Below, in pieces: positions 1 to 13,748 of a stretch of DNA of 64,000 bases. Below the pieces are notes generated by a model. It saw nothing but the letters and a program-made list of their open reading frames with translations, searched no databases and had not been told where the DNA came from. Numbering within the stretch: position 1 is the first letter of the stretch; each line of letters begins with the position of its first letter. Made by a program: the position numbers and the translations under genes. Source of the stretch: Pelosinus fermentans DSM 17108 (GTDB taxonomy: Bacteria; Bacillota; Negativicutes; DSM-13327); the NCBI RefSeq assembly GCF_000271485.2, contig NZ_AKVN02000001.1, positions 314,001-378,000 on the forward strand, read 5' to 3'.

Positions 1-636
1 TTTTTATATAACCAGGATCTACAAAGCCTTGCTACCCGGGAAATCGCTAAAAAACTCACACTTCTTCCCCAAAATCCAGTGGGACCTAATGAGTTGACAG
101 TAGAAGAATTGGTTACATACGGGCGGTTCCCCCATCTCAATCAAGGACAAAAAAGTTCAATAGCTGATCAAAAGGCCATTGAATGGGCTATGGATATTAC
201 TAAAACGATTTCATTTCGGCATCGCGAGCTGGGCAGCTTGTCAGGAGGAGAGCGGCAAAAGGTATGGCTGGCGATGGCATTGGCACAAGAAACTGCAATT
301 CTTCTATTGGATGAACCGACTACCTATTTGGATATGGTGCATCAGTTAGAAGTGCTGAAGATCGTGCAGCAGTTAAATCGTCAGAGACAGTGCACCATTG
401 TGATGGTGCTGCATGATATTAACCACGCAGCCCGTTTTTCTCATGAGATTGTTGCTATGAAGGAGGGGCATATCGTTGCATTGGGCAGCCCTCAGGAAAT
501 GATTACGCCAGAAGTATTAAAACAAGTTTTTTGTATCGATGCCAGGGTGATGCTTGATCCTCGGGATGGAGTACCTGTTTGTTTTAGTTATGATAATCTG
601 CAGACAGAGAAAAAAGCAATAGGAGGAGAGGCATGA
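1..636 (+). CDS. Iron-siderophore ABC transporter ATPase (FecE/FepC type), 5' truncated by window edge
   Basis: The frame is open from base 1, so the true start and the Walker A motif lie outside the window. Visible in order are a Q-loop (LLPQ), the ABC signature LSGGERQ (about 238-258), Walker B with LLLDEPT, and the switch His in VLHD. These define the nucleotide-binding subunit of an importer. The spacing and the YGRFPH segment after the Q-loop are typical of FecE/FepC/BtuD proteins for ferric siderophores or cobalamin. It ends in an ATGA overlap with a siderophore-esterase-like gene, which favours iron. The membrane permeases and binding protein should lie upstream, outside the window. 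Confidence 0.92.
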   Translation, partial: FLYNQDLQSLATREIAKKLTLLPQNPVGPNELTVEELVTYGRFPHLNQGQKSSIADQKAIEWAMDITKTISFRHRELGSLSGGERQKVWLAMALAQETAILLLDEPTTYLDMVHQLEVLKIVQQLNRQRQCTIVMVLHDINHAARFSHEIVAMKEGHIVALGSPQEMITPEVLKQVFCIDARVMLDPRDGVPVCFSYDNLQTEKKAIGGEA

Positions 637-1394
637 AGGGAACGCTGATTCTTACCGCTTTTATGAGCAGCGAAATCTGTATTTATCTGCCGCCATCCTA
701 TGATATGCATGAGGAGCATTTTCCCGTTGTTTATCTGCATGATGGGGGTTACCTGTTTCGCGACTGTCTGAGTGAGTTAGAAGAAATGATGATTGAAAAA
801 GAACTGCGGGAGTTTATCTTTGTAGGTATTAAACCGGATAATCGCAATGATGAGTATAGTCCTTGGTTTGCGAAAGCGATAACAGCAGGATTTTCTGACT
901 TTGGCGGTCAGGGAGCCCAGTATCTTGCTTTTTTGGTAAAGGAGCTGAAACCGTACATAGATGAGAAGTATCGTACGATAAGGAATCCGGAAAATACAGC
1001 AATTGCAGGTGCATCTTTAGGGGGATTGATTTCGATGTACGCGGCGTACCTGTATCCCGGGGTTTTTGGCAGGATTGCCTCGATCTCAGGCTCTTTTTGG
1101 TATGCAGGATTTATTGCGTTTATGCGTTCAGCAGATATTGTACATCTCGGGCGCAGGATTTACATGGACGTTGGATCATTAGAGGGGACGAGAAAAGATA
1201 ACGAGCAAAGAAACATGGTCGCAAAGAATCAAGAAGCGTATGGGATTTTATTAGATAAAGGGTTTTCTCGGGAATACTGCCAATTTGTTACCCACGAAGG
1301 TGGGGACCATGGGCACTCCTTCTTTCTGAAGCGATTCCCAACAGCATTACAATGGCTATTTCCCATAAAGATGATCAGCTGCTCTAGAAGATAG
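633..1394 (+). CDS. Siderophore esterase-like alpha/beta hydrolase
   Basis: This 253-residue protein is of the esterase D/enterochelin esterase type (Fes, IroE, BesA group). It has an HDGGYLF oxyanion-hole segment near residue 37, a nucleophile elbow GASLGG with Ser128, and a C-terminal HEGGDHGHSF carrying the likely catalytic His. No signal peptide is visible, so it probably acts in the cytoplasm and hydrolyses imported ferric tri-ester siderophore to release iron. Translational coupling (ATGA) to a FecE-type ATPase supports this. The substrate cannot be read from the sequence. A strong terminator overlaps its stop codon. Confidence 0.82.
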   Translation: MKGTLILTAFMSSEICIYLPPSYDMHEEHFPVVYLHDGGYLFRDCLSELEEMMIEKELREFIFVGIKPDNRNDEYSPWFAKAITAGFSDFGGQGAQYLAFLVKELKPYIDEKYRTIRNPENTAIAGASLGGLISMYAAYLYPGVFGRIASISGSFWYAGFIAFMRSADIVHLGRRIYMDVGSLEGTRKDNEQRNMVAKNQEAYGILLDKGFSREYCQFVTHEGGDHGHSFFLKRFPTALQWLFPIKMISCSRR

Positions 1395-1411
1395 AGCAGC
1401 TGATCATTTTA
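1371..1411 (+). terminator. Rho-independent terminator overlapping the esterase stop
   Basis: A perfect 15-bp stem (1371-1385 with 1393-1407) has a 7-base loop and is followed by TTTT. The left arm is inside the last codons of the esterase gene. Confidence 0.85.
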
Positions 1412-1422
1412 TTGTTTCCACC

Positions 1423-1588
1423 CGTGGCACACAAAGGAGAACACAAAAAATATAAATAAAATCCTTTGTGTACTTTGCGAAAGAGAGCCGGGAAAGAATG
1501 ATTGAACCGCAGAGACGCAAAGCGCGCAAAGAGGGATTCTTTAATCCTATTAATTATTTCTCTGTGTTCTCTGCGCCTCTGCGGTTCT
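1423..1588. repeat. Two dispersed palindromic repeat units (family A)
   Basis: The segment 1423-1479 nearly matches 6530-6593: GGCACACAAAGGAGAACAC, an A-rich centre, then CCTTTGTGT and CTTTGCG. The segment 1504-1588 is a long imperfect palindrome with outer arms GAACCGCAGAGACGCA and TGCGCCTCTGCGGTTC. The copy at 6508-6603 has the same architecture. This is non-coding, REP-like dispersed DNA between convergent genes. Confidence 0.75.
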
Positions 1589-1605
1589 AATGTGTTTTAT
1601 ATATT

Positions 1606-2487
1606 TTAAAGGACGCATAAGGATTTTCTTAAGAAAGTGAAAAGCTTTTCTTCAGCTACGCCAAAGGTGCTTCTTTCAGAGCTGCGCAAAAATCCAACTT
1701 CTAGATCCAGATTCAAATCTTGTACTATTTTTACTGCGGTACCAGCAGGAGCTGGTGTGACGGTGGCTGCGGGAACCAGGGCAATGCCATGATTTGCTTG
1801 GACATAATACTTAAGTGCAGCTAAACTGTTGATTTCAAGTGTTGAGTAAGAAGTGCCTATTTTTTGTAATAGAATCGATAGTTTTTTTCGAAAAACACAT
1901 TCTCGGGAGGTAACTAGAAATCGCTCGCCTTTTAAATCCTGTATCGTGATATCTTGTTTTACTGCAAGGGGATTCATGGAAGGAACCAGCAATACAAGAG
2001 GCTCAGAAAATAAAGGCTCAAACGTTAAGCCAGAGCTGGTTGACGGTACAGAAGAGATAGCAAAGTCGATTTCGCCTTTTAGAGTCAGTTCCGTTAAAGT
2101 GCATGTATTTCCAATTTGAATTGATATTTGTACTTTTGGATGGCATTCCATGAAGGCAGCCAAAATATTAGGCAATCGATAACTTGCAGCAGGTTCTATA
2201 GCACCTATTAAAATGGAGCCGGATTCTCCGAGGGTGATATCACTCATAGTACTTTGTAATTGATCGACATCTCGCAGGATATGGGCGGATTGTTCGCTGC
2301 AGATTCTTCCTGCTTCTGTCAGGCGAAAGCTTTTCCCCCGTTCAAATAAGGTAACTCCCAAATCTCGCTCTAATTTTTGAATTTGCATCGTTACAGTGGA
2401 TTGTGCATAGCGAAGCTCTTGGGCGGCTTGCTGGAAACTCCCCAGTTTTACAATCGTTAGGAATGTTTTGAGTCCTCGTAGATCCAT
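1606..2487 (-). CDS. LysR-family transcriptional regulator
   Basis: The protein has 293 residues from the ATG that gives the canonical MDLRGLKTFL start; an upstream in-frame GTG at 2499 lacks a spaced ribosome site. The N-terminal winged HTH (about 1-60) contains FQQAAQELRYAQSTVTMQIQKLE and the LFERG wing, followed by a LysR substrate-binding domain. It is transcribed away from the 4Fe-4S protein gene at 2642. The short intergenic region holds a TCAAT-ATA-ATTGA palindrome (2515-2527) that could be the operator. The inducer is unknown. Confidence 0.9.
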   Translation of the reverse strand: MDLRGLKTFLTIVKLGSFQQAAQELRYAQSTVTMQIQKLERDLGVTLFERGKSFRLTEAGRICSEQSAHILRDVDQLQSTMSDITLGESGSILIGAIEPAASYRLPNILAAFMECHPKVQISIQIGNTCTLTELTLKGEIDFAISSVPSTSSGLTFEPLFSEPLVLLVPSMNPLAVKQDITIQDLKGERFLVTSRECVFRKKLSILLQKIGTSYSTLEINSLAALKYYVQANHGIALVPAATVTPAPAGTAVKIVQDLNLDLEVGFLRSSERSTFGVAEEKLFTFLRKSLCVL

Positions 2488-2641
2488 AGTTGTTATCACT
2501 CCAATTGTTATAGTTCAATATAATTGATATAATGATTCTCTTATTTCAATTATACAGAATTAAGGAGATATAGTACAATAAAATTAGAAAATTACCATTG
2601 GTTTTAGGTGACGCAATGTATTGGGGATGGGGGAATGATGT

Positions 2642-3445
2642 ATGACAGGAATAACATTACAGGGGATACAAGATGCTGCGTGGTCCTTCACAAAGGATAG
2701 TCCGCTGAATACGATTGCAGAGTTAGATTCGCTGCAGCTTTTTGATGCACCGCTGATTGCGGCAGCAGATGCTTTTGACCCATTATTTGCAAAGTTAAAA
2801 GAAAATGAGGTTGTAGGCCCACAGCATCGAATGCCCCAAGAGTGGTTAGAAGGTGCCAAGTCGGTTATATCTTATTTTCTGCCTTTCACGAAAAGAGTCC
2901 GTGAAGCGAATCGAAAATTAGGGCTAGCTGCTCGGGAATGGATGTATGGACGCTATGAAGGAGAGCAGTTCAATAACTCTTTGAGGAACTATTTAGTGCA
3001 CTTTATTAAGGATTCTGGAATGCGAGCTGTTGCTCCCGGTCTGGATTCTCGTTTTAGTGTGGTGAATCGCCGCAGTAATTGGTCAGAGCGACATGTTGCT
3101 TTTGTAGCTGGTTTAGGAACCTTCAGCCTGAATCGATCATTAATTACCGCCCATGGTTCCGCCGGCAGGATTGGCAGTATCATTGTAGATGCTGCCATTG
3201 ATCCTACTGAGCGGCAGTATACTGGAATTGATGAGCATTGCACAAAATGCGGTGCTTGTATCTTGCGCTGCCCTCCGTTGGCGATCAATGAGCAAGGTAA
3301 GGATAATGCAGTTTGCTCAGATTACCTTGACCGTGTATTGGCGCGCTATCGTCCCAGATACGGCTGTGGAAAATGCCAGACGGCTGTGCCTTGTGAAGCG
3401 AGTATTCCTCGCATACAAGTAAGTTCTATGTCTGTAAATAGATAA
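2642..3445 (+). CDS. 4Fe-4S double-cluster protein (epoxyqueuosine-reductase-like iron-sulfur protein)
   Basis: This 267-residue protein has a C-terminal pair of ferredoxin-type motifs: CTKCGACILRC around residues 200-212, and a partly degenerate second set CGKC...PC near 240-250. The preceding domain resembles the QueG-related region (KSVISYFLPF, NRRSNWSERHVAFVAGLGTFSLNRSLIT). It lacks the HEAT-repeat extension of true QueG, so it is best called a QueG-like 4Fe-4S protein of unknown function. It is divergent from a LysR gene that probably controls it, and it ends before a strong terminator at 3521. Confidence 0.8.
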   Translation: MTGITLQGIQDAAWSFTKDSPLNTIAELDSLQLFDAPLIAAADAFDPLFAKLKENEVVGPQHRMPQEWLEGAKSVISYFLPFTKRVREANRKLGLAAREWMYGRYEGEQFNNSLRNYLVHFIKDSGMRAVAPGLDSRFSVVNRRSNWSERHVAFVAGLGTFSLNRSLITAHGSAGRIGSIIVDAAIDPTERQYTGIDEHCTKCGACILRCPPLAINEQGKDNAVCSDYLDRVLARYRPRYGCGKCQTAVPCEASIPRIQVSSMSVNR

Positions 3446-3520
3446 TAATAAATCAATAGCACTATTAATGGCAAATCCTAATGTTAGACAATCAGTTAAA
3501 CAACAGCAATAACTTTATAA

Positions 3521-3561
3521 AAAAATCAATGAACCGCGAAAAGCGGTTCATTGATTTTTTT
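3521..3561 (+). terminator. Rho-independent terminator
   Basis: The stem AATCAATGAACCGC / GCGGTTCATTGATT has a GAAAA loop and a T-run. It closes the 4Fe-4S protein transcript. Confidence 0.9.
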
Positions 3562-3610
3562 ATATAATTGGTTTAATTGCATATGGTCAAATAGAGTTCA
3601 AAGAAATCCT

Positions 3611-3618
3611 TTCGATAT
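3611..3618 (+). promoter_or_regulatory. Possible sigma-28-like -10 element
   Basis: TTCGATAT, 58 bases before the flagellin-like gene, resembles the flagellar sigma -10 GCCGATAA. No clean TAAA -35 sits 15 bases upstream (AATA is at about 16), so this is only suggestive. Confidence 0.3.
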
Positions 3619-3675
3619 AAAATACAGGATAGGAAAAAGTTTTACCTTCTCACGAGGGGTTAGGAGTGAGTACCA

Positions 3676-5331
3676 ATGAGAATTAATAGCGCAATTGTGG
3701 AAACGAATAAGGCAGCGAGTCAGAAAGATAATGTATCAAAGAAGAAGCCTCTATCACTTGTTCCTAATATAGAGACAAGTTCCTCAAACTATGAAGATGC
3801 TGTCAAGGTTGAAATGTCTGAAGATACAAAGAATAAGGCTGATATACCGGTGCAAACATTGAAAAATATGCAAAATGGTGTATCCTTGCTGCAAGCTGCG
3901 GATCAAGATTTAGATAAAATTCGCAGCATGCTTGAGCGAGGGAAAGAATTAGCAGCTCAAGCGGCTGATTCTCAAGACGAAGCTGAAAAGGAAAGGTTTC
4001 AAAACGAAATTAATAGTATAAATCATGATATTGACAGCTATAATACCACTTATTCATCAGATCCGAATAATGAAGAGGTTATAACAGCTTTAAAAAGTGA
4101 TTGGTTAGAAGTAGCGGAAGATGTCATTAAGGAGCGCTATGGATTAGTTGGCGATGGAGCAGAATTGCAGATCGTGCTGGATGAAGATTCTGTACCTTAT
4201 CTTGCTGCGATCATGTACAATTATGACAAAGATGGGAAAGCAATTAACCAGACCATGCATATTGCCGTAAAAAGTGCACTTCCAGCTGCTTTGCCCAATG
4301 GGGGAAGAGACCCGGGGCAGTACGACGATCGCGTTGTTACTCATGAGATGGTTCATGTACTCATGGGACGGACAATGAACTTTCAAGCGATGCCTAACTG
4401 GTTTAAAGAAGGAACTGCGGAATTCATCCATGGTCCTAACGAGAGGGTGGTCCTTGATTTAAAGCGCAGTGGTGGAGGTATGAAAGGTGCAACAGCGCTT
4501 CAGGATGCTTTGGGTGATGGGACCAATCATTCCTGGGCGAATACGAGTTTACATTATTCGGCAGCATCCATGGCAGTACGTTATTTACATACGAAGATAA
4601 AAGAAGATGGCTATAGCGGCGGCATAAAAGATTTGCTGACGGATCTAAAGTCCAACCCAACGGAAAGCCTTGATCAAGCGTTGAACAATGTCTCTCGTTA
4701 TTCTAATGTGAAGGCTTTTGTTAATGATTATGTTAAAAATGGGAATGGGGCTGCATTTATCTATAATCTTGATACAGCGGGTGAATTTAGAGCCTCTCTG
4801 GCTGGAGGAGATACGGGAGCTATTGGAGGATCTACTGTTGATGGCGGTCCCATTCAGACGGCAGAATCGGTAATTCCTGATATCAACCATCCTACGGATA
4901 CACCGCTGGAAAACTTCCGTGTCATTTGGCCAACCCGCAGGGAAGATCAAATTCCATATCAGGACAATAAAGCTGCTATGATTGAAAGCAGTAGGGGAAA
5001 TTACACACAGTTTAAAGTAGATAGCAAGGCTCTTGGTACGGATCAAGTGGATTTTATTAACCATCCTGATGCAGCCAGCAGAATTTTTGATGAGGCGATA
5101 TCCTATGTTACCGATAAGCAAGCGCAGCTTGAGGATATAAGAAATAAATTAAAAAATCAAGAGAGTGTGACAGCTGAAAAGATCAATTCTTCGGGGATAA
5201 CAGATTCTCATATGGTCAAAAAGGAGATGGAACAAGTAAAAACCAGTCTGGGTGATGCAAATGCTGGAATTGTGTCGAAGATAGCAAAGCTACAGCCTGA
5301 AAGAGTATTGCAGCTGCTGAAAAGCAGTTAG
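3676..5331 (+). CDS. Flagellin-like metalloprotease (flagellinolysin-type)
   Basis: The protein has 551 residues. It opens with MRIN, as flagellins do, and residues about 65-120 resemble the flagellin D1 helix (MQNGVSLLQAADQDLDKI, MLERGKELAAQAADS). Residues about 464-551 resemble the flagellin C-terminal helices and end with PERVLQLL. Between them lies a zinc metalloprotease domain with HEMVH at 223-227 and a candidate third ligand Glu249 in WFKEGTAEFIHG, a gluzincin-like arrangement. This is the layout of flagellinolysins, proteolytic flagellins with a peptidase in the hypervariable region. The first 60 residues diverge strongly from ordinary flagellin, so filament assembly is uncertain. No flagellar gene is nearby. 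It has a good ribosome site and is probably monocistronic. Confidence 0.8.
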   Translation: MRINSAIVETNKAASQKDNVSKKKPLSLVPNIETSSSNYEDAVKVEMSEDTKNKADIPVQTLKNMQNGVSLLQAADQDLDKIRSMLERGKELAAQAADSQDEAEKERFQNEINSINHDIDSYNTTYSSDPNNEEVITALKSDWLEVAEDVIKERYGLVGDGAELQIVLDEDSVPYLAAIMYNYDKDGKAINQTMHIAVKSALPAALPNGGRDPGQYDDRVVTHEMVHVLMGRTMNFQAMPNWFKEGTAEFIHGPNERVVLDLKRSGGGMKGATALQDALGDGTNHSWANTSLHYSAASMAVRYLHTKIKEDGYSGGIKDLLTDLKSNPTESLDQALNNVSRYSNVKAFVNDYVKNGNGAAFIYNLDTAGEFRASLAGGDTGAIGGSTVDGGPIQTAESVIPDINHPTDTPLENFRVIWPTRREDQIPYQDNKAAMIESSRGNYTQFKVDSKALGTDQVDFINHPDAASRIFDEAISYVTDKQAQLEDIRNKLKNQESVTAEKINSSGITDSHMVKKEMEQVKTSLGDANAGIVSKIAKLQPERVLQLLKSS

Positions 5332-5351
5332 GAAAAAAAAGGATAAATAGT

Positions 5352-5425
5352 AACTCCTGCAAGGAATGATCTTGCAGGAGTTTGTATGTAAAATGAGAAA
5401 TAGAATAAAATAGAAATAGAGATTT
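5352..5425 (+). repeat. TGCAGGAGTTT hairpin repeat, copy 1 (family B)
   Basis: The hairpin AACTCCTGCAAG / CTTGCAGGAGTT is followed by a T-rich, then A-rich tail. The same hairpin and tail recur at 21334, 31016 and 37871, with the hairpin alone at 33275. Here it can also terminate the flagellin-like gene. Confidence 0.75.
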
Positions 5426-5474
5426 TATGGTTGTTCTTCGGGGATACAATACATGATAGTAGGAGGAGATCGAT

Positions 5475-6083
5475 ATGGCTTTACCATTACGTATTATTTT
5501 TGATTTTTCTTGTCCATACTGCTACATTGCATGGGGATTTGTTCAAAAGCTAAAAGAGACAATTGATCTGGCTGATGACTGGGTTGGCTGGGAAATACAT
5601 CCGGATCTTCCGAAAGGCGGCCGGATGATCCAAGATGTCGTGCCTGGTATTGTATTTAGTGAAAGAGTGGAGAAACTGAATGCCCTTGGTGAACCAGCTG
5701 GTCTTGTACCGGGAAATAAGCTGTTGGTACCGAATACGCGGCTGGCTTTGCAGGGATTGGAATTTGCCCGCGACAACGGTAAGGTGCAGGAGTGGGTTGC
5801 CGAGGTTTATAAAACCAGCTATGTGTTAGATCAAAATATCGGTGATATAGAGGTGCTAATCGGCATTGCTCGTCAGATTGGTCTGGATATAGCAGCATTT
5901 GAGCAGGCAGTGGCAAGTGAACGCTATCTTCCAATATTGCTGAAAGCGGATCAGGAATGTATGGACAAGCAGCTGGAATGGGTTCCGACTATCTTTAGCG
6001 GGACAGAAAAGGTATTAGAAGGAGCCTTGACTTACGAAGTTTTTGAAAAGACACTAGTGGCCATGTCAGCTTTAAAACGGTAG
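5475..6083 (+). CDS. DsbA-family thioredoxin-fold oxidoreductase (FrnE-like)
   Basis: This 202-residue cytoplasmic protein has no signal peptide. The CPYC redox motif is at residues 13-16 after an IIFDFS strand, and the cis-Pro region is near EWVPTIF at about 170. The helical insertion places it in the DSBA-like/2-hydroxychromene-2-carboxylate isomerase group (FrnE/YwbO-like). The likely role is cytosolic thiol-disulfide exchange or glutathione-independent isomerisation. It has a strong AGGAGG ribosome site. It may share a transcript with the CGGC protein 60 bases downstream. Confidence 0.85.
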   Translation: MALPLRIIFDFSCPYCYIAWGFVQKLKETIDLADDWVGWEIHPDLPKGGRMIQDVVPGIVFSERVEKLNALGEPAGLVPGNKLLVPNTRLALQGLEFARDNGKVQEWVAEVYKTSYVLDQNIGDIEVLIGIARQIGLDIAAFEQAVASERYLPILLKADQECMDKQLEWVPTIFSGTEKVLEGALTYEVFEKTLVAMSALKR

Positions 6084-6143
6084 ATCGAGTTATTTCGATA
6101 GATATGGAAAGGCGTTTCGAAAATGTAAAAATGAAGGTGAACC

Positions 6144-6488
6144 ATGAAAGTTGCTATATTAGTCAGAGAAGAAACCATGAAGCGCTGTACTGGTAAAGGT
6201 TGCCTTAATGCCTTTTTTCAAAGAAAGGATGCTTTTGCCGGATACGAGGGCGATATTGAGCTGATTACTTTTTCTCATGCTGACGGTGATATTGATCATA
6301 AGATTGAGACGATGATCAAAAATGGCGTAGATGTGGTGCATTTGTCTACCTGTATGCGGGGGAAAGCCCCTAATTATGAAGTATTGGCAAAGCGCCTAAG
6401 CGAGCATTTTGATGTCGTAGGATATACCCATGGATCAAAAGAAGGCAAGGGGCAAGAGACGATCATTATGAAGAAAGTTACGAAGTAA
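6144..6488 (+). CDS. CGGC-domain protein
   Basis: This 114-residue protein matches the CGGC-domain family (putative metal-binding). Cys15 and Cys20 lie in the motif CTGKGC near the N terminus, a second region has HLSTCMRG, and the protein ends with a short GYTHG-containing segment. The family is small, cytosolic and of unknown function, with conserved Cys residues suggesting metal or redox chemistry. It follows the DsbA-like gene on the same strand. Confidence 0.75.
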   Translation: MKVAILVREETMKRCTGKGCLNAFFQRKDAFAGYEGDIELITFSHADGDIDHKIETMIKNGVDVVHLSTCMRGKAPNYEVLAKRLSEHFDVVGYTHGSKEGKGQETIIMKKVTK

Positions 6489-6507
6489 AGAAAATATAAG
6501 ATTTTAT

Positions 6508-6606
6508 GAACCACAAAGGCGCAATGCCGCTACCCGCGGCACACAAAGGAGAACACAAAAAATATAATAAAACCCTTTGTGTCCTTTGCGTCTTTGTGGT
6601 TCATTT
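6508..6606. repeat. Dispersed palindromic repeat (family A), second locus
   Basis: Outer arms GAACCACAAAGGCGCA and TGCGTCTTTGTGGTTC form an imperfect palindrome of about 100 bases, ending in a T-run that may terminate transcription. The inner part is nearly identical to 1423-1479. It makes the upstream in-frame start (6579) of the MATE frame unlikely to be real. Confidence 0.8.
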
Positions 6607-6701
6607 TTTTATTGCAGGGAATTTTGACAATCTCACAGTTTTCTGATAGGATAAACAAATTGTATTTGGAATCCTGTTTGTGTTGCATGGGGGGAATGGC
6701 T

Positions 6702-8027
6702 GTGAGTCAGTTATCGTTATTTAAGCTTGCCTGGCCGATATTTTTGGAATTATTTCTGATTACGTTGGTAGGGTTTGTAAATGTATTTATATTAAGCAAG
6801 TATGACAGTGTTGCTGCAGCAGCTGTGGAAGCTACGATTCAAATTTTATGGAATTTTTTTCTGGTATTTGCCATCATTTCCATGGGAACCTCGGTTTTAG
6901 TGGCGCAGAATGTAGGGGCCAAACGACCGGAAGAAATTGATAAAGTGGCTGCTGTATCCCTGCTGTTTAATGCGATTTTAGGCGGGATAGCCAGTTTGGT
7001 GCTAGTCATTGGCGGAAAAAAGATGTTGATGTTTATGGGAATTGCTGATAATTTATTATCCTACGCTCATACCTACTTGCTCTTAGCAGGTGGTTTTATT
7101 TTTTTTGACGCGATGCTGTCGTCGGCTGATGCCATACTGAAAGGATTTGGGAGAACCAAGCAGTGCCTTGCGATAACCGCTTTTATGAATGTTTTAAATT
7201 TGATTGGATCTGTAGTACTAGGACTTGGAGTGGCAGGAATTCCGGCGATGGGGGTTTACGGCGTTGGGATTGCGGCTGTTTGCAGTAAAGGAATTGCAGT
7301 GTGTTCTGCCTTGGTATATTTATTTACTAAGCTGCTTAAGCTCGATATCCTGCGTCATTTACTTCAATTTCCTAAGACCCAGTTGAAACAGTTATTGAAG
7401 ATTGGCTTTCCCGCTGCAATGGAAAACATGTCTTATAACATGAGTCAGACGGTGCTTATGACCATCATTATTGTCCATTTGGGAGCCGATGCATATATTA
7501 CCCGCACCTATGCCTGGTCCATTATTAAGATGGCCTTTCTATTTTCCTTAGCTATTGGGCAAGCCAATATTATTATGATCGGACAATTAGTGGGTGCCAG
7601 GAAATTTGAAGAAGCAGAGAAAGCTGGAATGCATAATTTTTTGGTCGCCTTTGCTTCGGCCTGGATCATTGGAGGTATGTTGTTTGTATTTAGGTATCAA
7701 CTTATTGGGATCTTCACCACAGATGCAAAGATTATTGCTCTTGGTGCTCTGATCTTTGCAATTGATGCTCTTTTAGAGCCGGGACGAACGTTTAATATTG
7801 TCTTTATTTATGGTTTGCGGGGCGCTGGAGATGTCAATTTTCCTGTGATCGTTGCCATACTTTCCATGTGGTCTGTTACCATTGGGCTAGGTTACTATCT
7901 GGGAGTCATTTTGGGATTTGGTCTGCCGGCAATTTGGGCTCTGATGCTTGTCGATGAATGGCTGCGCGGAATGTGTATGTTATGGCGCTGGAAAAGCGGT
8001 GCATGGAAGACCAAGATTATGGTATAA
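6702..8027 (+). CDS. MATE-family multidrug efflux transporter
   Basis: This integral membrane protein of about 441 residues has roughly 12 hydrophobic segments in two MatE halves (LAWPIFLELFLITLVGFVNVFIL... and IGFPAAMENMSYNMSQTVLM...). It exports cationic drugs or metabolites using Na+ or H+. I chose GTG 6702 because a GGGGGG ribosome site lies 7 bases upstream; ATG 6687 and ATG 6696 lack proper spacing, and the 6579 start falls inside a repeat. The 3' end overlaps the convergent gene at 8017 by 11 bases. Confidence 0.88.
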   Translation: MSQLSLFKLAWPIFLELFLITLVGFVNVFILSKYDSVAAAAVEATIQILWNFFLVFAIISMGTSVLVAQNVGAKRPEEIDKVAAVSLLFNAILGGIASLVLVIGGKKMLMFMGIADNLLSYAHTYLLLAGGFIFFDAMLSSADAILKGFGRTKQCLAITAFMNVLNLIGSVVLGLGVAGIPAMGVYGVGIAAVCSKGIAVCSALVYLFTKLLKLDILRHLLQFPKTQLKQLLKIGFPAAMENMSYNMSQTVLMTIIIVHLGADAYITRTYAWSIIKMAFLFSLAIGQANIIMIGQLVGARKFEEAEKAGMHNFLVAFASAWIIGGMLFVFRYQLIGIFTTDAKIIALGALIFAIDALLEPGRTFNIVFIYGLRGAGDVNFPVIVAILSMWSVTIGLGYYLGVILGFGLPAIWALMLVDEWLRGMCMLWRWKSGAWKTKIMV

Positions 8028-8820
8028 GGAACTTAGCGGTATCCTCCAGTTTCAGCGGAGATTTTTTGGGGAGACTGCCGAATTCTGTCATGTATTTCCA
8101 GTAACGTTTTGGCATATGGCTCATGCGGCATTTAGGGTTGTGACGGCCCTGTATTTCGATGGTATCGTAGAAGAGCTGCCATAGCTCCCGGTAGGATTGT
8201 TCTTGTTCATCCGGTTCAGGAAGCTCAAGATCTTCAATTGGAATTATGGCAGATTGGTAAGGCTGGTAAACCAATGCCATGCCATGGGTTTTATCATAGA
8301 TTAAAAAACGCTCTTCTGGATAACGTTCACTAAAATGCTGGGTCATCAGCGGCAGTACGTAATTTTTTGGCTCTATTTGGGCAACCAGAATATTGTTGAA
8401 GATGGAAAATCGTACAAATCCTTTCAACAGGTGACTTTCGTTATCTAAATGTTTCACAGCCTTAAACAGGGTATTAACTGTGTCATCGGTCAACATACCC
8501 ATTATGGATCGTCCATAGCGATAACCTAAACGCAGGAATAGAAGAATGTACAACTCTTTTTTTTCAGCACAGGTTAGGAAGGCGCGTCGTATGAAATTCA
8601 GAGCATCGCATCCCATTTTCTCCGGGATGGAAGCCAGTACTCGGCTTGATTTTTCCATGTCAGTCCTAATTTCTTTAGCGGCAAAGAGAAATGTCTGGGA
8701 GGCGTCCGGCAGGATGATTTCTGTCGGAATTTCTTTTTTATCATAGCTCTCAAATACGCAGCAGAGCAGCCCGTCAAAGCTTCCGTCATAACGATAAATC
8801 AGATTGGACTGGTCAAACAT
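8017..8820 (-). CDS. TIGR03915/DUF4130 putative DNA repair protein
   Basis: This 267-residue protein matches the DUF4130 family: it starts with YRYDGSFDGLLCCVFESYD and ends with a PKRYWKYMTEF segment. The family is almost always encoded beside the radical SAM protein TIGR03916, as here with a 22-base overlap, and is predicted to act with it in DNA modification or repair. The two share the promoter upstream of 10136. Biochemistry is not established. Confidence 0.85.
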   Translation of the reverse strand: MFDQSNLIYRYDGSFDGLLCCVFESYDKKEIPTEIILPDASQTFLFAAKEIRTDMEKSSRVLASIPEKMGCDALNFIRRAFLTCAEKKELYILLFLRLGYRYGRSIMGMLTDDTVNTLFKAVKHLDNESHLLKGFVRFSIFNNILVAQIEPKNYVLPLMTQHFSERYPEERFLIYDKTHGMALVYQPYQSAIIPIEDLELPEPDEQEQSYRELWQLFYDTIEIQGRHNPKCRMSHMPKRYWKYMTEFGSLPKKSPLKLEDTAKFLIP

Positions 8821-10136
8821 CTTTGAAGATCCTCCTGTGGGTATCCAGATAATATCATGGGTGGCTGTTCAAAAAGAGAGAGCTGCTTATTCTGTGATTG
8901 AAGTGGAAAACTCTGGTGATACATACCTAAGGTTTTTTCTGACATTAAAGACTGCAGTACTTTATCCTGGGTAATTTTTAAGCTGCCTGTGGCTTTACCG
9001 CCGCAAGTAATAAAATACTGTGCCCGCTTTAGTACAACTCCCAGTTTCTTTAGATCATTAAATTGGAGGGTTGCTGAGCGGCGGGCAATTACAATTCGTT
9101 TGGCGCTGTTTACGCCAATGCCGGGCACCCGCAGCAAGTCACTGTAGGGTGCCCGGTTTATATTTATAGGAAAGAAATCCATATGATGGAGTGCCCAATT
9201 GCATTTTGGGTCTAAAAAGGGATTAAAACTTTGGTGCTGCTGATCCAGGAGCTCATTTGCCGTGAAACCGTAAAATCGAAGCAGCCAATCCGCTTGATAA
9301 AGCCTATGTTCCCGCCAAAGAGGCGGAGTTGTATCTAAGGTGGGCAGCAGGACGTTTTCGGCTACAGGCATATAGGCAGAAAAAAATACCCGCTTTAACT
9401 TATATTTTTTATAAAGACCTTCTGTTAAATTCAAGATCTGAAAATCAGTATCTGGCGTAGCGCCGATAATCATTTGAGTACTCTGACCGGCAGGAACAAA
9501 CTTTGGTGCATGGCGATATTTTATGATATCTGTAGAATTTTCTTGGATGCGATTTTGAATGTATTTCATAGGTGCTAAAATAGAATGCTTAGACTTGTCC
9601 GGTGCCAGCAGCTGCAGACTACTCTGGGAAGGCAGTTCAATATTTACACTCATGCGATCAGTCAGCATGCCCAACCGGGCAATGAGACCGCTGTCTGTTC
9701 CAGGAATGGCTTTTGCATGGATGTATCCAAAAAATCGGTATTCCTCTCGCAGGATGCGCAGTGCCTCAATCATTTGCTCGGTGGTATAGTCCGGATTTTT
9801 CAGTACGCCGGAACTTAAAAAAAGCCCTTCAATATAATTGCGTCGATAAAAATTGATGGTCAGTTCTGCCAATTCCCGTGGTGTAAAAGACGCTCGTGGA
9901 GTGTCATTTGACTTACGGTTTACACAGTATTTACAATCATAGGCGCATACGTTGGTCATCAGTACCTTTAATAGTGAGATGCACCGACCGTCTCCTGAGA
10001 AGCTGTGGCAGATGCCGCTGGCCGCTGCACTGCCAATTCCTCCGGCGGACGCCTTTTTATTCACTCCGCTGGAGGTGCAGGCCACATCATATTTGGCTGC
10101 GTCGGTCAAAATTTTCAGCTTGTCAAAAACATCCAT
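8799..10136 (-). CDS. Putative DNA modification/repair radical SAM protein (TIGR03916)
   Basis: The protein has about 445 residues. The radical SAM cluster motif CAYDCKYC (C-x3-C-x2-C) is near residue 70. A helix-hairpin-helix DNA-binding element is near the C-terminal third (INRAPYSDLLRVPGIGVNSAKRIVIARR). This matches the radical SAM partner of DUF4130 proteins. ATG 10136 is preferred: AAGGAG lies 9 bases upstream, while the ATG six bases earlier is too close. A LexA-like box sits in its promoter region. Confidence 0.88.
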   Translation of the reverse strand: MDVFDKLKILTDAAKYDVACTSSGVNKKASAGGIGSAAASGICHSFSGDGRCISLLKVLMTNVCAYDCKYCVNRKSNDTPRASFTPRELAELTINFYRRNYIEGLFLSSGVLKNPDYTTEQMIEALRILREEYRFFGYIHAKAIPGTDSGLIARLGMLTDRMSVNIELPSQSSLQLLAPDKSKHSILAPMKYIQNRIQENSTDIIKYRHAPKFVPAGQSTQMIIGATPDTDFQILNLTEGLYKKYKLKRVFFSAYMPVAENVLLPTLDTTPPLWREHRLYQADWLLRFYGFTANELLDQQHQSFNPFLDPKCNWALHHMDFFPININRAPYSDLLRVPGIGVNSAKRIVIARRSATLQFNDLKKLGVVLKRAQYFITCGGKATGSLKITQDKVLQSLMSEKTLGMYHQSFPLQSQNKQLSLFEQPPMILSGYPQEDLQRCLTSPI

Positions 10137-10173
10137 GTGCATTAACTCCTTTATGTATCTTCATTATATTGTA

Positions 10174-10185
10174 GAACATATGTTT
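10174..10185. promoter_or_regulatory. LexA-like SOS box upstream of the radical SAM repair pair
   Basis: GAACATATGTTT differs by one base from the Gram-positive LexA core GAACATATGTTC. It lies 38 bases upstream of the start at 10136. On the minus strand it is just upstream of a TATAAT, so it would block RNA polymerase. SOS control is inference. Confidence 0.6.
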
Positions 10186-10291
10186 GGTTTATGCAAAGGA
10201 ATTTTTAACCATCTAAATACGACCTATTCTGTGCTTTTTTCTTACGAGTTGAATATAGTACCATGTAGAGACTTTTAATGGAGTGATTTGC

Positions 10292-11107
10292 ATGGGATAT
10301 TTTATTGAAGTTGAGCCAAACATAAATCTTTATGTGGAAGATGTCAACCCGGGAAGCAGTAAGACCATTGTATTTATACATGGTTGGCCTGCTAATCATA
10401 GAATGTTTGAGTATCAATTTGACCAGCTCCCGGCAATGGGCTATCGTTGCATTGGAATTGATCTTAGAGGATTCGGCAATTCGGATAAGCCTTGGGGAGG
10501 CTATGACTATGATCAATCCGCAGATGATATTCGATGTGTGGTTGAAGCCCTTGGTTTAGAAGACTTTGTACTTGGAGGACATTCTACAGGGGGAGGCATT
10601 GTGATTCGCTATATGGCCCGCCACAATGGCTATGGGGTAGCGAAGCTTGCTCTTTTTGCAGCTGCAGCTCCCAGCCTGATTCAACGTCCATATTTTCCTC
10701 ATGGGTTAAAGAAAGAAGACGTAGATAAAATCATTCAAGATACACTGGATGATCGTCCCAAAATGCTTAGGGGCTTTGGAGACATGTTTTTCTTTCAGTA
10801 CGTAACCCAGCCTTTTTCGGACTGGTTCTTTCAATTAGGATTACAAGCGGCAGGCTGGTCTACCGCTGCAGTTGCGAATTCGTGGCTGGATGAAGAAAGG
10901 CTCTTTTCTGATCTTGAAACCATATGTGTTCCTACATTAATTCTTCATGGCATTCACGATAAAGTTTGTCTGTTTCCATTGGCTATTGCACAACATGAAG
11001 GAATTAGAAACTCTAAACTTGTACCCTTCAAATACAGCGGTCACGGATTGTTCTATGACCAGCGGGATAAATTCAATAAAGAATTGGTGCAGTTTATGGA
11101 GGAATGA
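10292..11107 (+). CDS. Alpha/beta hydrolase (chloroperoxidase/haloalkane-dehalogenase-like)
   Basis: The protein has 271 residues from ATG 10292, with GGAG eight bases upstream. It has the oxyanion strand FIHGWPANHRMFEYQ, nucleophile elbow GGHSTGGG with Ser as nucleophile, acid in LHGIHDKV, and His in YSGHGLFYD. This is the fold of non-haem peroxidase/esterase-type hydrolases. It is cytosolic and monocistronic, ending at the terminator at 11145. The substrate is unknown. Confidence 0.85.
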   Translation: MGYFIEVEPNINLYVEDVNPGSSKTIVFIHGWPANHRMFEYQFDQLPAMGYRCIGIDLRGFGNSDKPWGGYDYDQSADDIRCVVEALGLEDFVLGGHSTGGGIVIRYMARHNGYGVAKLALFAAAAPSLIQRPYFPHGLKKEDVDKIIQDTLDDRPKMLRGFGDMFFFQYVTQPFSDWFFQLGLQAAGWSTAAVANSWLDEERLFSDLETICVPTLILHGIHDKVCLFPLAIAQHEGIRNSKLVPFKYSGHGLFYDQRDKFNKELVQFMEE

Positions 11108-11144
11108 AATCTGTTAGCATTTAAATAGACAGCTGTGAATATGT

Positions 11145-11179
11145 AATGCCCCTTGGTCAGTGATTGACCAAGGGGCATT
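11145..11179. terminator. Bidirectional terminator
   Basis: The perfect stem AATGCCCCTTGGTCA / TGACCAAGGGGCATT lies between the convergent hydrolase and fumarylacetoacetase-family genes. Confidence 0.85.
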
Positions 11180-11192
11180 GACTAGTAGTCCA

Positions 11193-12107
11193 CTAGCCTA
11201 CGGTGTTGATTAATGTTCCCAGACCGGTAATTGATAGTTCCAGTTTGTCTCCAGGCTTCAAAAATACAGGAGGTGTTGAATAGGCTCCAACGCCGGCGGG
11301 GGTGCCGGTAGAGATAATATCTCCGGGTTCAAGAGTAATACCAGAGGAAATCGTACTGATAAGTGTTGGAATATCAAAAATTAGAGAATTCGTGTTAGCA
11401 TGCTGTCTTAGCTCGCCGTTTACCTTTAATGTTACTGTTAGGTCATTGACTGAAGGAACAGAAGTCTTGTGAACAAGGAAGGGACCCATTGGTGCTGTGG
11501 TATCAAGACTTTTGCCACGAAACCACTGCTGGTGACGCTTTTGTAAATCCCGTGCCGTCACATCATTAAGAATGGTATAGCCAAATACATAGTCCATTGC
11601 CTCTTCTTTGCTAACATAGGAAGCCTTCTTCCCAATGATTACAGCCAGTTCTACTTCATAGTCCAAAGCATTTGTAACTTGGCTATGACTGTTAATGATG
11701 TCGCCAGGGCCAATTACCGTAGTGGGAGCCTTGGTAAAGATAACTGGATATTTAGGGATAGCTACACTCGGGTCGGCGCTTGTGTCACCCTCCATAGCAT
11801 GTTCGGCATAGTTTTTGCCAATGCAGAAAATATTTTTGGCAGGACGAGGAATTGGCGCTACAATCCGGATGTTGTCCGGTGACAGCAGAAATGGAAGATC
11901 GCTTTGTGCTTCTACTGATTTCACGATCGACTTGACTCGCTGTAAAGCTAATTCACCTTGCTGAATAAGAGAGAGTAGCGTAGTCGGCAATATGGTTTCA
12001 CCATAAAAATGATGCTCGGCGGCCAGCAGAGGAATGATCTGTTTTTGGTCTGCTGTCAAGAGGCCGATTTCTTCTTGACCGTTAGATTGATATGTTAAAA
12101 AATGCAT
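11193..12107 (-). CDS. Fumarylacetoacetate hydrolase-family protein
   Basis: The protein has 304 residues from ATG 12107, with GAGGAGG nine bases upstream; the longer frame to 12176 has no ribosome site. It has an N-terminal MHFLTYQSNGQEEIGLL domain, then the FAH fold with CIGKNYAEHA, the metal ligands in DYEVELAVIIGK, and the catalytic-lid motif GYTILNDVTARDLQ. The GTPAGVG loop is near the C terminus. The family includes 2-hydroxyhepta-2,4-diene-1,7-dioate isomerases, acylpyruvases and oxaloacetate decarboxylases. It is monocistronic and the substrate is unassigned. Confidence 0.88.
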   Translation of the reverse strand: MHFLTYQSNGQEEIGLLTADQKQIIPLLAAEHHFYGETILPTTLLSLIQQGELALQRVKSIVKSVEAQSDLPFLLSPDNIRIVAPIPRPAKNIFCIGKNYAEHAMEGDTSADPSVAIPKYPVIFTKAPTTVIGPGDIINSHSQVTNALDYEVELAVIIGKKASYVSKEEAMDYVFGYTILNDVTARDLQKRHQQWFRGKSLDTTAPMGPFLVHKTSVPSVNDLTVTLKVNGELRQHANTNSLIFDIPTLISTISSGITLEPGDIISTGTPAGVGAYSTPPVFLKPGDKLELSITGLGTLINTVG

Positions 12108-12375
12108 GCAAGTATCCCTCCTCTTAAAAAAATAGTATACAAAATTTAACATAATCCCATTTTGCAGTTTTGTCAATCACTATATGAGAAAAATCTAAAA
12201 CGTTATTCTCATTATTAGGGAAATATTTCATAGTAAAGCAGCTCTGGTAAAATAAAGGCTTTTGTATGCTCGGGGAATAGAGGCTTCACCTTTGTCCCTG
12301 ACGAAGCTTTATAGATAGTAAGTATGAATAAGTAGAGTGGTTTTTTAGGGAAATTTATGGAGGGGGATTTTTAAT

Positions 12376-13386
12376 ATGAAAATTGCTATCATTTCACCAA
12401 TTGCATGGAGGACGCCGCCGAGGCATTATGGTCCTTGGGAGAGAGTCGTTTCCTTATTGGCAGAGGGGCTTGTGAAAGAGGGGATTGATGTAACACTCTA
12501 TGCTACTGGCGATTCATTAACCAGTGCGAAGCTTCGTAGTGTGTGCAAAGCGCCCTATGAAGAAGACAAAGAACTGGATGCAAAAGTTTGGGAATCTTTG
12601 CATATATCCCAAATCATGGAGCAGGCAGATGAATTTGACATCATACATAACAATTATGATTTTTTGCCTCTGACCTATAGCGGTCTTATAAAAACACCTG
12701 TTATAACAACGATACATGGATTTTCTTCGCCTAAAATTATGCCTGTGTATAGAAAATATAACAAAAAAACTCACTATGTCTCTATTAGTAATGCGGACCG
12801 GCATGAGGATCTGGATTATATAAGGACTGTATACCATGGCATTGACATCGAAAAATTCACATTAAACAAAGAACAGGGCAATTATTTAGTTTACTTTGGA
12901 AGAATACATAAGGACAAGGGAACTTGGGAGGCAATACAAGTTGCTAAAAGAGCAAAAATGAAGCTGGTTATTGCTGGAATTATACAGGATAAGTCTTATT
13001 ACGAAAATGACGTAGAGCCATATCTTAATGACGACGTATGTTACATTGGCTCCGTAGGTCCTGAAGAAAGAAATAATGTTCTGGGTAATGCATATGCATT
13101 GCTGCATCCCATTCATTTTAATGAACCTTTTGGTCTTAGTATTGTGGAATCAATGGCATGCGGAACACCTGTCCTTGCATTTAATAAAGGTTCTATGCCC
13201 GAAATTATTCAGGATGGTATGAATGGGTTTATTGTGTCTGATGTGGAGGAAATGGCTGAGAAGATTAAAGATATCAGAAATATTTCACGGGAAGACTGCC
13301 GCAAAACGGTTGAATGCAAATTTACACAGGAGAAAATGGTAAAACAATATATTGAGGTTTACAAAGAAATATTAAAAAAATTATAG
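12376..13386 (+). CDS. Glycosyltransferase family 4
   Basis: This 336-residue GT-B protein has an N-terminal acceptor domain (IAIISPIAWRTPPRHYGPWERVV) and a C-terminal nucleotide-sugar domain with the GT4 E-x7-E motif in NEPFGLSIVESMACGTPVLAF. The FGRIHKDKGTWEAI hinge is typical of mannosyl- and glucosyltransferases of this family. No membrane segment is present. It lies first in a cluster with GH130, another GT4 and ManC, so GDP-mannose is the likely donor (inference). A separate promoter follows at 13575, so it may be its own transcript. Confidence 0.88.
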   Translation: MKIAIISPIAWRTPPRHYGPWERVVSLLAEGLVKEGIDVTLYATGDSLTSAKLRSVCKAPYEEDKELDAKVWESLHISQIMEQADEFDIIHNNYDFLPLTYSGLIKTPVITTIHGFSSPKIMPVYRKYNKKTHYVSISNADRHEDLDYIRTVYHGIDIEKFTLNKEQGNYLVYFGRIHKDKGTWEAIQVAKRAKMKLVIAGIIQDKSYYENDVEPYLNDDVCYIGSVGPEERNNVLGNAYALLHPIHFNEPFGLSIVESMACGTPVLAFNKGSMPEIIQDGMNGFIVSDVEEMAEKIKDIRNISREDCRKTVECKFTQEKMVKQYIEVYKEILKKL

Positions 13387-13574
13387 TTAATAAGGAATCC
13401 TATTAAAATCGAAATATCATCTTGGTATGTCTGCCAGGATATAATAATGAATGAAAAGCTCTTGGGCATTACAAATAGAGGATTGATTTATGCATGTGCC
13501 CGGGCATAAACCAGAAGATTGTCAAAAAATGTTCAATAGAAATGGATGATTGTTTATTCAGGAAAAACGATTAT
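13387..13574. other. Intergenic, short inverted repeats only
   Basis: No gene is visible. The only structure is TTTATGC...GCATAAA (13487-13510) enclosing the palindrome TGCCCGGGCA. It has no T-run, so it is not a classical terminator. Confidence 0.5.
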
Positions 13575-13603
13575 TTGACGGAAATAATTATTTGTAGTAT
13601 AAT
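13575..13603 (+). promoter_or_regulatory. Sigma-A promoter for the GH130 gene
   Basis: TTGACG (13575-13580), a 17-base spacer, and TATAAT (13598-13603). It defines a leader of roughly 140 bases before the GH130 start. Confidence 0.75.
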
Positions 13604-13611
13604 AAAGTATA

Positions 13612-13748
13612 AATCGTTTGAACCTACTGTCTGACGATTGGGAACAATACTATATTGTGTTTTAACCGCCACGGGATATACAGACTGGGTGTGAGATCTC
13701 ACACTTGCCGGCAACGCGCCGAATATCCAAACGTAGGGGGTTTTTTTT
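13612..13748 (+). promoter_or_regulatory. Structured 5' leader of the GH130 gene, possible new cis-regulatory RNA
   Basis: Nested elements are visible: an outer stem GGATAT (13673-13679 area) with ATATCC (about 13725), an inner hairpin from the perfect palindrome GTGTGAGATCTCACAC (13689-13704), and a small GGC/GCC hairpin. In addition, CGTTTG and CCTAC near 13616-13626 can each pair with the overlapping CAAACG/GTAGG near 13729-13738, which would be mutually exclusive. A GGGGG-T8 stretch abuts the ATG. It matches no riboswitch class I recognise. Confidence 0.45.

What the first reader, a model, noticed from the sequence alone, without database searches (positions are those of the whole stretch)
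3676..5331. Orphan, divergent flagellinolysin outside any flagellar cluster
Flagellin-like helices at both ends flank an HEMVH zinc protease with Glu249 as candidate third ligand. Proteolytic flagellins are known, but this one has a degenerate first 60 residues and no flagellar gene nearby. It may be a minor filament subunit or a repurposed secreted protease using the flagellar export route.
Basis: partly seen in the sequence, partly recalled or inferred. Interest (0 to 1): 0.75.

Follow-up and report, generated by a model that had tools for sequence, protein, structure and literature searches.

The report
Flagellin-derived protease lacking filament core
A protein-cutting enzyme that evolved from a flagellum building block has lost the parts needed to build a flagellum but kept its active site and a short tail that could still admit it to the flagellar export channel, so it may now work as a freely released enzyme.

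Summary
The ORF at 3676-5331 (+, 551 aa) is real: 323 bits on NCBI's flagellinolysin model (cut-off 205), over 600 kb from the flagellin of a flagellated, Pelosinus-like genome. It belongs to one well-supported clade (100/100) of 11 relatives in five Negativicutes families. The nearest relatives outside the clade have full D0, so the loss looks derived. The N-terminal D1 helix survives in 10 of 11, and so do V and L of a C-terminal VLxLL tail, the FliS-docking end of ordinary flagellins (profile support for the tail is moderate: 7 of 10). A perfect sigma-28-like promoter, present before 21 of 31 flagellin genes, precedes 0 of 11; 8 of 11 have 11-bp direct repeats instead. One member (G020) has lost both flagellin ends. 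Best reading: a former proteolytic flagellin turned non-filament protease, probably exported by the flagellar type III route with FliS. Loss of D0 is shown; export and release are inferred.

The parts
3676..5331 (+). CDS, 551 aa: D0-less flagellinolysin-type zinc peptidase
   Evidence: orthologues
3586..3618 (+). 11-bp direct repeat (GTCAAA-N5-TTCAAA at 3586-3602) followed by TTTCGATAT at 3610-3618; candidate regulator/promoter box
   Evidence: read; 8 of 11 orphans with at most 2 mismatches (motif noticed in the same sequences first, so post hoc)
3676..3813 (+). residues 1-46: degenerate former N-terminal D0
   Evidence: 4.3 bits against canonical minimum 74.6; pLDDT under 50
3814..4038 (+). 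residues 47-121: N-terminal D1 helices
   Evidence: (33.1 bits)
4072..4890 (+). residues 133-405: zinc peptidase domain
4342..4356 (+). HEMVH (residues 223-227)
   Evidence: H, E, H invariant in 30 of 30 peptidase rows
4408..4410 (+). Glu245, probable third zinc ligand (with Ala248 as hydrophobic basement)
   Evidence: invariant in 30 of 30; Glu249 in 27 of 30; spacing as in PMC5595980
5065..5199 (+). residues 464-508: predicted C-terminal D1 helix
   Evidence: but the C-terminal D1 sequence profile does not match (-1.8 bits)
5200..5292 (+). residues 509-539: degenerate former C-terminal D0
   Evidence: 4.4 bits against canonical minimum 71.2; Flagellin_C no hit
5293..5322 (+). residues 540-549, QPERVLQLLK: retained flagellin C-terminal tail (FliS-docking end in ordinary flagellins)
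   Evidence: alignments; 9.5 bits
5354..5380 (+). terminator-like inverted repeat after the gene, also present at the empty sites of G004 and G007
   Evidence: sequence read; not scored by the terminator scan

Best explanation
A proteolytic flagellin in an ancestor of this Negativicutes clade lost both halves of D0, the part that forms the filament core. It kept its zinc peptidase, an N-terminal D1 stalk and, in most members, the last ten residues that on ordinary flagellins dock to the chaperone FliS. Proposed working: the gene is expressed outside the sigma-28 flagellin programme; FliS recognises the VLxLL tail; FlhA accepts the complex; the chain passes through the flagellar type III channel and, unable to polymerise, is released as a soluble metal-dependent endopeptidase. 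Shown: ancestry, loss of recognisable D0 in one clade, conserved active-site motif, purifying selection, no perfect sigma-28-like promoter. Inferred: FliS binding, export route, release, enzymatic activity.
For: Flagellinolysin model 323 bits. Eleven relatives in one clade, 100/100; nearest outside relatives have full D0, orphans still one clade at 100/99 with them added. N-terminal D0 -1.1 to 5.1 bits against at least 74.6; main N-terminal D1 9.2-33.4 bits in 10 of 11. No displaced D0 in six frames at any of 11 genes. Active-site residues invariant; peptidase dN/dS 0.035-0.084 in the three Pelosinus pairs. Tail: V544 and L547 in 10 of 10, L545 in 9, L548 in 8 of the orphans that have a C-terminus; equivalents of B. 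subtilis V299, L300, L302, L303, where V299D and L300E leave almost no filaments (PMC6070490); C. jejuni FliS needs the last ten residues of FlaA, and secretion of non-structural FlaC needs FliS (PMC5466977). No perfect sigma-28-like site: 0 of 11 against 21 of 31 flagellins. No Sec-like stretch. FlhA in 10 of 11 carriers, a flagellin in 11 of 11, FliS in the own genome.
Against: No direct evidence of export or FliS binding. The tail signal is modest: only 7 of 10 tails exceed the shuffled 95% point of 2.9 bits and one exceeds the shuffled maximum; Fisher p 0.03; tail dN/dS is 0.74 in G313-G315. G020 lacks the tail altogether yet keeps the peptidase. The N-terminal region that ordinarily carries a flagellin export signal is itself degenerate. 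FlhA is common in the class anyway (236 of 380). 5 of 11 orphans have a one-mismatch sigma-28-like site, a level that shuffles reach in 43%.
Confidence: 0.5

Rival explanations
1. The protein has left the flagellar route. The D1 and tail remnants are inherited relics, and it acts in the cytoplasm, after lysis or sporulation, or leaves by an unknown path.
For: G020 has lost both flagellin ends and keeps the active site (no Pfam hit at E<=0.001); no perfect sigma-28-like promoter; tail conservation modest; residues 461-535 diverge fast (dN/dS up to 0.48 in Pelosinus).
Against: V544/L547 kept in 10 of 10 orphans with a C-terminus; D1 dN/dS 0.125-0.135 in Pelosinus; carriers are flagellated. A free cytoplasmic broad protease would be unusual (own knowledge).
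Confidence: 0.3
2. Minor subunit of the filament, or a protein of its base or tip, held by D1 contacts without D0.
For: D1 fold predicted (Z 16.0 to 9hpz); known flagellinolysins are filament subunits (C. haemolyticum, PMC5595980); VLxLL tail kept.
Against: Both D0 halves unrecognisable; model residues 1-57 of low confidence without helix before 49; no perfect sigma-28-like promoter. D0 is described as the major driver of self-polymerisation (PMC7643111, passage).
Confidence: 0.13
3. A decaying gene without function.
For: Patchy presence (3 of 8 Pelosinus-genus genomes held); clean absence in G004 and a short possible remnant in G007; fast-changing flagellin ends.
Against: Intact ORFs at all 11 loci; three Pelosinus copies of the same length; peptidase dN/dS 0.035-0.084 there; the invariant columns of A1 lie, but for one, in residues 139-419.
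Confidence: 0.04

Closest known systems
Flagellinolysin (FlaMP, NF033876), e.g. Clostridium haemolyticum FliA(H) (PMC5595980, parts 1-3 of 6 read) and Hylemonella gracilis FlaMP (PMC7643111, passages)
   Same: Homologous HExxH...E gluzincin domain between flagellin-derived ends; above NCBI's curated cut-off
   Different: Those have conserved flagellin N and C domains and C. haemolyticum's is in the filament; here D0 is unrecognisable at both ends, Flagellin_C does not match, no perfect sigma-28-like promoter, outside flagellar clusters
Campylobacter FlaC, a non-structural flagellin secreted through the flagellum (PMC5466977, passages; PMC4863622, search listing only)
   Same: A flagellin relative proposed to be exported with FliS and not built into the filament
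   Different: FlaC carries D0-D1 and largely lacks D2-D3; this protein lacks D0 and keeps an enzyme in the variable region. Secretion is shown for FlaC, only inferred here
Clostridial collagenase (M9) and lugdulysin (M30) peptidase domains
   Same: Predicted peptidase fold close to lugdulysin (7bb8, Z 11.6, 3.7 A, 208 residues); Peptidase_M9 matched by 8 of 11 members at E<=0.01
   Different: Those domains do not sit between flagellin helices (own knowledge); P0001 is below Pfam's M9 cut-off (14 against 26 bits)

Membership tests
Flagellinolysin (NF033876) | Score over NCBI's curated cut-off for the family model | tested here: met
   P0001 323.2 bits, cut-off 205; G001, G003 and G020 also over it; 11 of 11 match at E<=0.01, bit scores of the other seven not shown
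Flagellinolysin (NF033876) | HExxH with a distal Glu ligand and Ala at Glu+3 | tested here: met
   H223, E224, H227, E245, A248 invariant in 30 of 30 rows
Flagellinolysin (NF033876) | Conserved flagellin N- and C-terminal domains around the peptidase | tested here: not met
   D0 unrecognisable at the N end; Flagellin_C no hit; only D1 and the tail remain. So: flagellinolysin by descent and peptidase, not a proteolytic flagellin in the full sense
Flagellinolysin (NF033876) | Presence in the assembled filament with proteolytic activity | not testable with these tools
   needs filament proteomics and an assay
Flagellin | Pfam Flagellin_N over cut-off | tested here: inconclusive
   22.5 bits by hmmscan (cut-off 26.6); 27.2 bits in the genome search; only residues 40-126
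Flagellin | Pfam Flagellin_C | tested here: not met
   no hit at E<=1; 0 of 11 orphan loci, with a hit elsewhere in 11 of 11 of these genomes
Flagellin | D0 filament core | tested here: not met
   N-terminal D0 -1.1 to 5.1 bits against canonical minimum 74.6; C-terminal D0 at most 5.6 or unscored in 10 of 11, 16.1 in G323, canonical minimum 71.2
Non-structural secreted flagellin (FlaC type) | FliS- and export-apparatus-dependent release into the medium | not testable with these tools
   only tail residues and the presence of FliS (own genome) and FlhA (10 of 11) genes were checked
Gluzincin metallopeptidase (M9/M30-like) | HExxH-x17-E and matching fold | tested here: met
   lugdulysin Z 11.6 over 208 residues

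The most novel reading that the evidence does not exclude
In one clade of Negativicutes a filament protein was converted stepwise into a free secreted enzyme: D0 lost but export tail kept (10 members), then both flagellin ends lost (G020), with transcription moved from the flagellin-type promoter to a response-regulator-type repeat box. It would be a natural case of the flagellar channel used to secrete a soluble protease.
Probability: 0.35. Interest if true: 0.7.

Novelty: new variant of a known kind. Interest (0 to 1): 0.55.

Why it matters
Proteolytic flagellins are known as filament enzymes. A clade in which the filament core was lost while peptidase, stalk and chaperone tail remain separates what is needed to polymerise from what is needed to be exported, by natural experiment, and offers a testable candidate for flagellar secretion of a soluble enzyme in environmental bacteria.

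Tried and rejected
Sigma-28 profile by expectation-maximisation drifted onto coding sequence of tandem flagellins and was dropped; a fixed consensus with shuffles was used instead.

Pho-box idea for the upstream repeats: of three pstS-type upstream regions printed (one of G304, two of G323), two carry TTAACA-type repeats, not TTCAAA; the own genome's was not printed because that script showed plus-strand genes only. A phosphate regulon was not adopted. The exact repeat pattern occurs 12 times in the own genome against 5 for the reversed control and pointed to no clear regulon. A longer three-part pattern found nothing in the window; the third element does not keep the 11-bp period.

First AlphaFold model (A1, 11 rows) had mean pLDDT 49.1 and was replaced by the A2 model (63.7). 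Foldseek gave no match at E<=0.001 for either. Collagenase does not appear among the 50 entries shown by VIA-align, which is no evidence against it.

Start-codon or frameshift artefact as cause of the missing D0: not supported by a six-frame profile search up to 1.5 kb around the 11 genes; N-terminal D0 at most -0.1 bits, C-terminal D0 plus tail at most 9.9 (G323) and 9.3 (G303), both in the genes' own C-termini. Pseudogene: not supported.

Weak points kept in view: canonical scores come from rows the profiles were built on; P0001 and P0002 N-terminal D0 (4.3, 5.1) exceed the shuffled 95% point (3.6) though not the maximum (15.0); the D1 score of G305 (9.2) is under the shuffled maximum (10.9). 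G313 and G312 are too close for useful dN/dS (peptidase 0.42 on 10 changes). Two rows with permuted segment order were left out of the tree, and one long-branch row besides. For G315 and G303 the upstream tests assumed a later start codon than the longest ORF.

Literature: no paper on D0-less flagellinolysins appeared in the listings of searches. Pelosinus, Sporomusa and Negativicutes do not occur in the main texts of PMC7643111 and PMC5595980. The papers' supplementary species lists could not be read, so Pelosinus may be listed there.

Full report
What is there. The ORF at 3676-5331 (+) codes for 551 aa. The window is G000:C1:314001-378000 of a 5.03-Mb genome. The genus is Pelosinus by relatedness: P. 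fermentans JBW45 and P. propionicus hold syntenic 551-aa orthologues at 89% and 86% identity. Neighbours read are an esterase, a LysR regulator, an iron-sulphur protein that I take as QueG-like (Pfam only a weak Fer4_9), a DsbA-like protein and a CGGC protein. No flagellar gene was recognised among the ORFs of 1-14000, and phmmer with the own flagellin (ORFs of 200 aa or more, E<=1e-8) found no other flagellin in G000:C1:304000-322000 (L043); the rest of the window was not annotated. The own flagellin is at 926.8 kb, a FlgL-like protein at 924.4 kb, FlhA at 2289 kb; FliW and FliS genes lie in the flagellin cluster.

Peptidase. NCBIfam NF033876 matches residues 110-485 at 323.2 bits, cut-off 205. 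H223, E224, H227, E245, G246 and A248 are invariant in 30 of 30 aligned peptidase rows; E249 in 27 of 30.

Flagellin parts. N-terminal D1 is real: phmmer aligns residues 6-124 with B. subtilis flagellin, and Flagellin_N matches 10 of 11 clade members at E<=0.01. Flagellin_C does not match P0001 at E<=1 nor any of the 11 orphan loci, although each of those 11 genomes has a Flagellin_C hit elsewhere (30 matches, all seen).

A clade. Of 380 Negativicutes genomes searched, 61 matched at E<=1e-10: 11 with at least 424 bits (45-89% identity to P0001 in alignment A1), and 50, all of family f11, with at most 76 bits. The 11 are from five families (f1, f12, f23, f30, f33); in the genus 3 of 8 genomes held have it. 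The peptidase tree of 28 rows puts the 11 on one side of a branch at 100/100. In a draw of 398 genomes of the phylum, two genomes outside the class hold three relatives of 34-37% identity, scoring higher (175-195 bits) than any f11 protein; all three carry N- and C-terminal D0 sequence (read). With them added the orphans remain one clade (100/99) beside D0-bearing relatives. A single derived loss of D0 is the simplest reading; the nearest of the three (G569) is a long branch that the program flags, joined at 92/84.

How complete is the loss. Profiles of each flagellin region, from 25 canonical rows (19 flagellinolysins, 6 flagellins), were run on the 11 orphans. N-terminal D0: canonical minimum 74.6 bits, orphans -1.1 to 5.1 (shuffled 95% point 3.6, maximum 15.0). 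First part of D1: canonical minimum 35.8, orphans at most 0.8. Main N-terminal D1: canonical minimum 102.5, orphans 9.2-33.4 in 10, 0.6 in G020 (shuffled 95% 3.9, maximum 10.9). C-terminal D1: canonical minimum 47.1, orphans at most 3.1. C-terminal D0: canonical minimum 71.2, orphans at most 5.6 or unscored in 10, 16.1 in G323 (shuffled maximum 7.2). Last 12 residues: canonical minimum 21.4, orphans 1.7-10.6 in 10, none in G020 (shuffled 95% 2.9, maximum 9.7); 7 of the 10 exceed 2.9. Canonical values are training rows and so flattered. A six-frame search found no displaced D0; a canonical control gave 87.5 and 94.0 bits.

Selection. Nei-Gojobori dN/dS in the three Pelosinus pairs: peptidase 0.035-0.084; residues 1-60 0.12-0.37; D1 0.125-0.135; residues 461-535 0.17-0.48; last 16 residues 0.02-0.12 (few sites). 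The tail is 0.04-0.22 in the f30 pairs but 0.74 in G313-G315, against the tail idea. The gene is not a pseudogene, and its degenerate N-terminus is still constrained in Pelosinus.

Structure. The AlphaFold model on 36 rows (mean pLDDT 63.7, pTM 0.53) has well-scored D1 helices and peptidase; residues 1-57 have pLDDT under 50 with no helix before 49, and most of 505-551 is under 50. VIA-align places model residues 46-507 on flagellin D1 (9hpz Z 16.0, 2.7 A, 158 residues; 5gy2, 53-501, Z 15.7, 2.3 A, 146) and 133-375 on the M30 peptidase lugdulysin (Z 11.6, 3.7 A, 208). The tool warns that helical bundles can reach about Z 13 by arrangement alone, and the input alignment contained flagellins, so this supports but does not prove the D1 fold.

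The tail. One search aligns residues 465-549 with B. subtilis flagellin 215-304, so V544, L545, L547, L548 correspond to V299, L300, L302, L303. V544 and L547 are kept in 10 of the 10 orphans with a C-terminus, L545 in 9, L548 in 8 (Ile in 2). In C. jejuni deletion of the last ten residues of FlaA prevents FliS binding, and FliS is needed for secretion of the non-structural flagellin FlaC (PMC5466977, passages). In B. subtilis FliS wraps the flagellin C-terminus and touches D1, the first 45 residues of flagellin are disordered in that complex, and V299D and L300E show almost no filaments, which the authors read as probably a secretion defect since the proteins are stable (PMC6070490, passages; the sentence on the swarming of V299D is cut in what I saw). 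So what is kept here is largely what serves export, and what is lost serves polymerisation. The statistic is modest: 19 of 36 tail positions match canonical residues against 97 of 276 before it, four representative lineages, Fisher p 0.03.

Regulation and route. A perfect TAA-N15-19-CGATA site lies within 200 bp of 21 of 31 flagellin genes and 7 of 15 canonical flagellinolysins, but 0 of 11 orphans; 5 of 11 orphans have one mismatch, which shuffles reach in 43% (perfect: 3%). Instead 7 of 11 have TTCAAA-N5-TTCAAA with at most one mismatch and G303 with two, 65-118 bp upstream (shuffle P 0-0.017, G303 0.09); the three f23 members lack it. The motif was noticed by eye in the same sequences, so these values are post hoc. 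An 11-bp direct repeat suggests an OmpR/PhoB-type regulator (own knowledge). The first 60 residues show no Sec-like stretch (highest 15-residue Kyte-Doolittle mean -0.05 for P0001, 1.27 for G303; two signal-peptide-like controls 1.84 and 2.65). FlhA is found in 10 of 11 carriers (the miss, G305, is 65% complete), against 236 of 380 in the class. No flagellin ORF was found in the regions taken around the orphans, but in G020 two Flagellin_C hits lie 26-31 kb away on the same contig.

Presence and absence. In G004 the flanking genes adjoin without about window 3431-5340, and tblastn finds no trace; G007 keeps a short stretch resembling the last codons, which would suit loss rather than recent gain, but it is short.

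Judgement. A flagellinolysin by descent and peptidase, no longer a flagellin by the D0 and Flagellin_C tests. Most likely a soluble protease sent out by the flagellar export apparatus with FliS (0.5); next, a protein that has left the flagellar route (0.3); a minor filament subunit is less likely (0.13). NCBI's model already names the peptidase, so this is a new variant of a known kind.

Noticed in passing
L040:7953-9245 (genome G020): A 430-aa relative with the peptidase motif intact but neither flagellin end recognisable (D1 0.6 bits, no C-terminus, no Pfam hit at E<=0.001); end member of the loss series.
   Followed up: partly
L039:5049-6944 (genome G019), also L069 and L070: Flagellinolysins of family f11 whose variable region is in permuted order: the segment matching model positions 221-321 stands before the one matching 39-218 (L069 and L070 read from alignment A2).
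   Followed up: no
L042:5938-6813 (own genome, C1 about 4794 kb): A separate 291-aa Peptidase_MA_2 protein (66 bits) that cross-matches the flagellinolysin model at 48 bits; a possible relative of the inserted peptidase.
   Followed up: partly
L143 (G004) and L144 (G007) against window 3431-5340: Same-genus genomes with the flanking genes but without this gene; G007 keeps a short stretch resembling its last codons.
   Followed up: partly
L077 and L078 (G313, G312): The orphan gene is flanked by ORFs that look like transposases (read by eye, no family search), which may bear on its patchy distribution.
   Followed up: no
L040 and L079 (G020, G315): The two orphan loci share several neighbour ORFs (an LpxA-like acyltransferase, small secreted proteins, an OmpR-type response regulator), read by eye.
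   Followed up: no
window 3586-3618 and upstream of 7 other orphans: 11-bp direct repeats TTCAAA-N5-TTCAAA before the gene; regulator unknown.
   Followed up: partly
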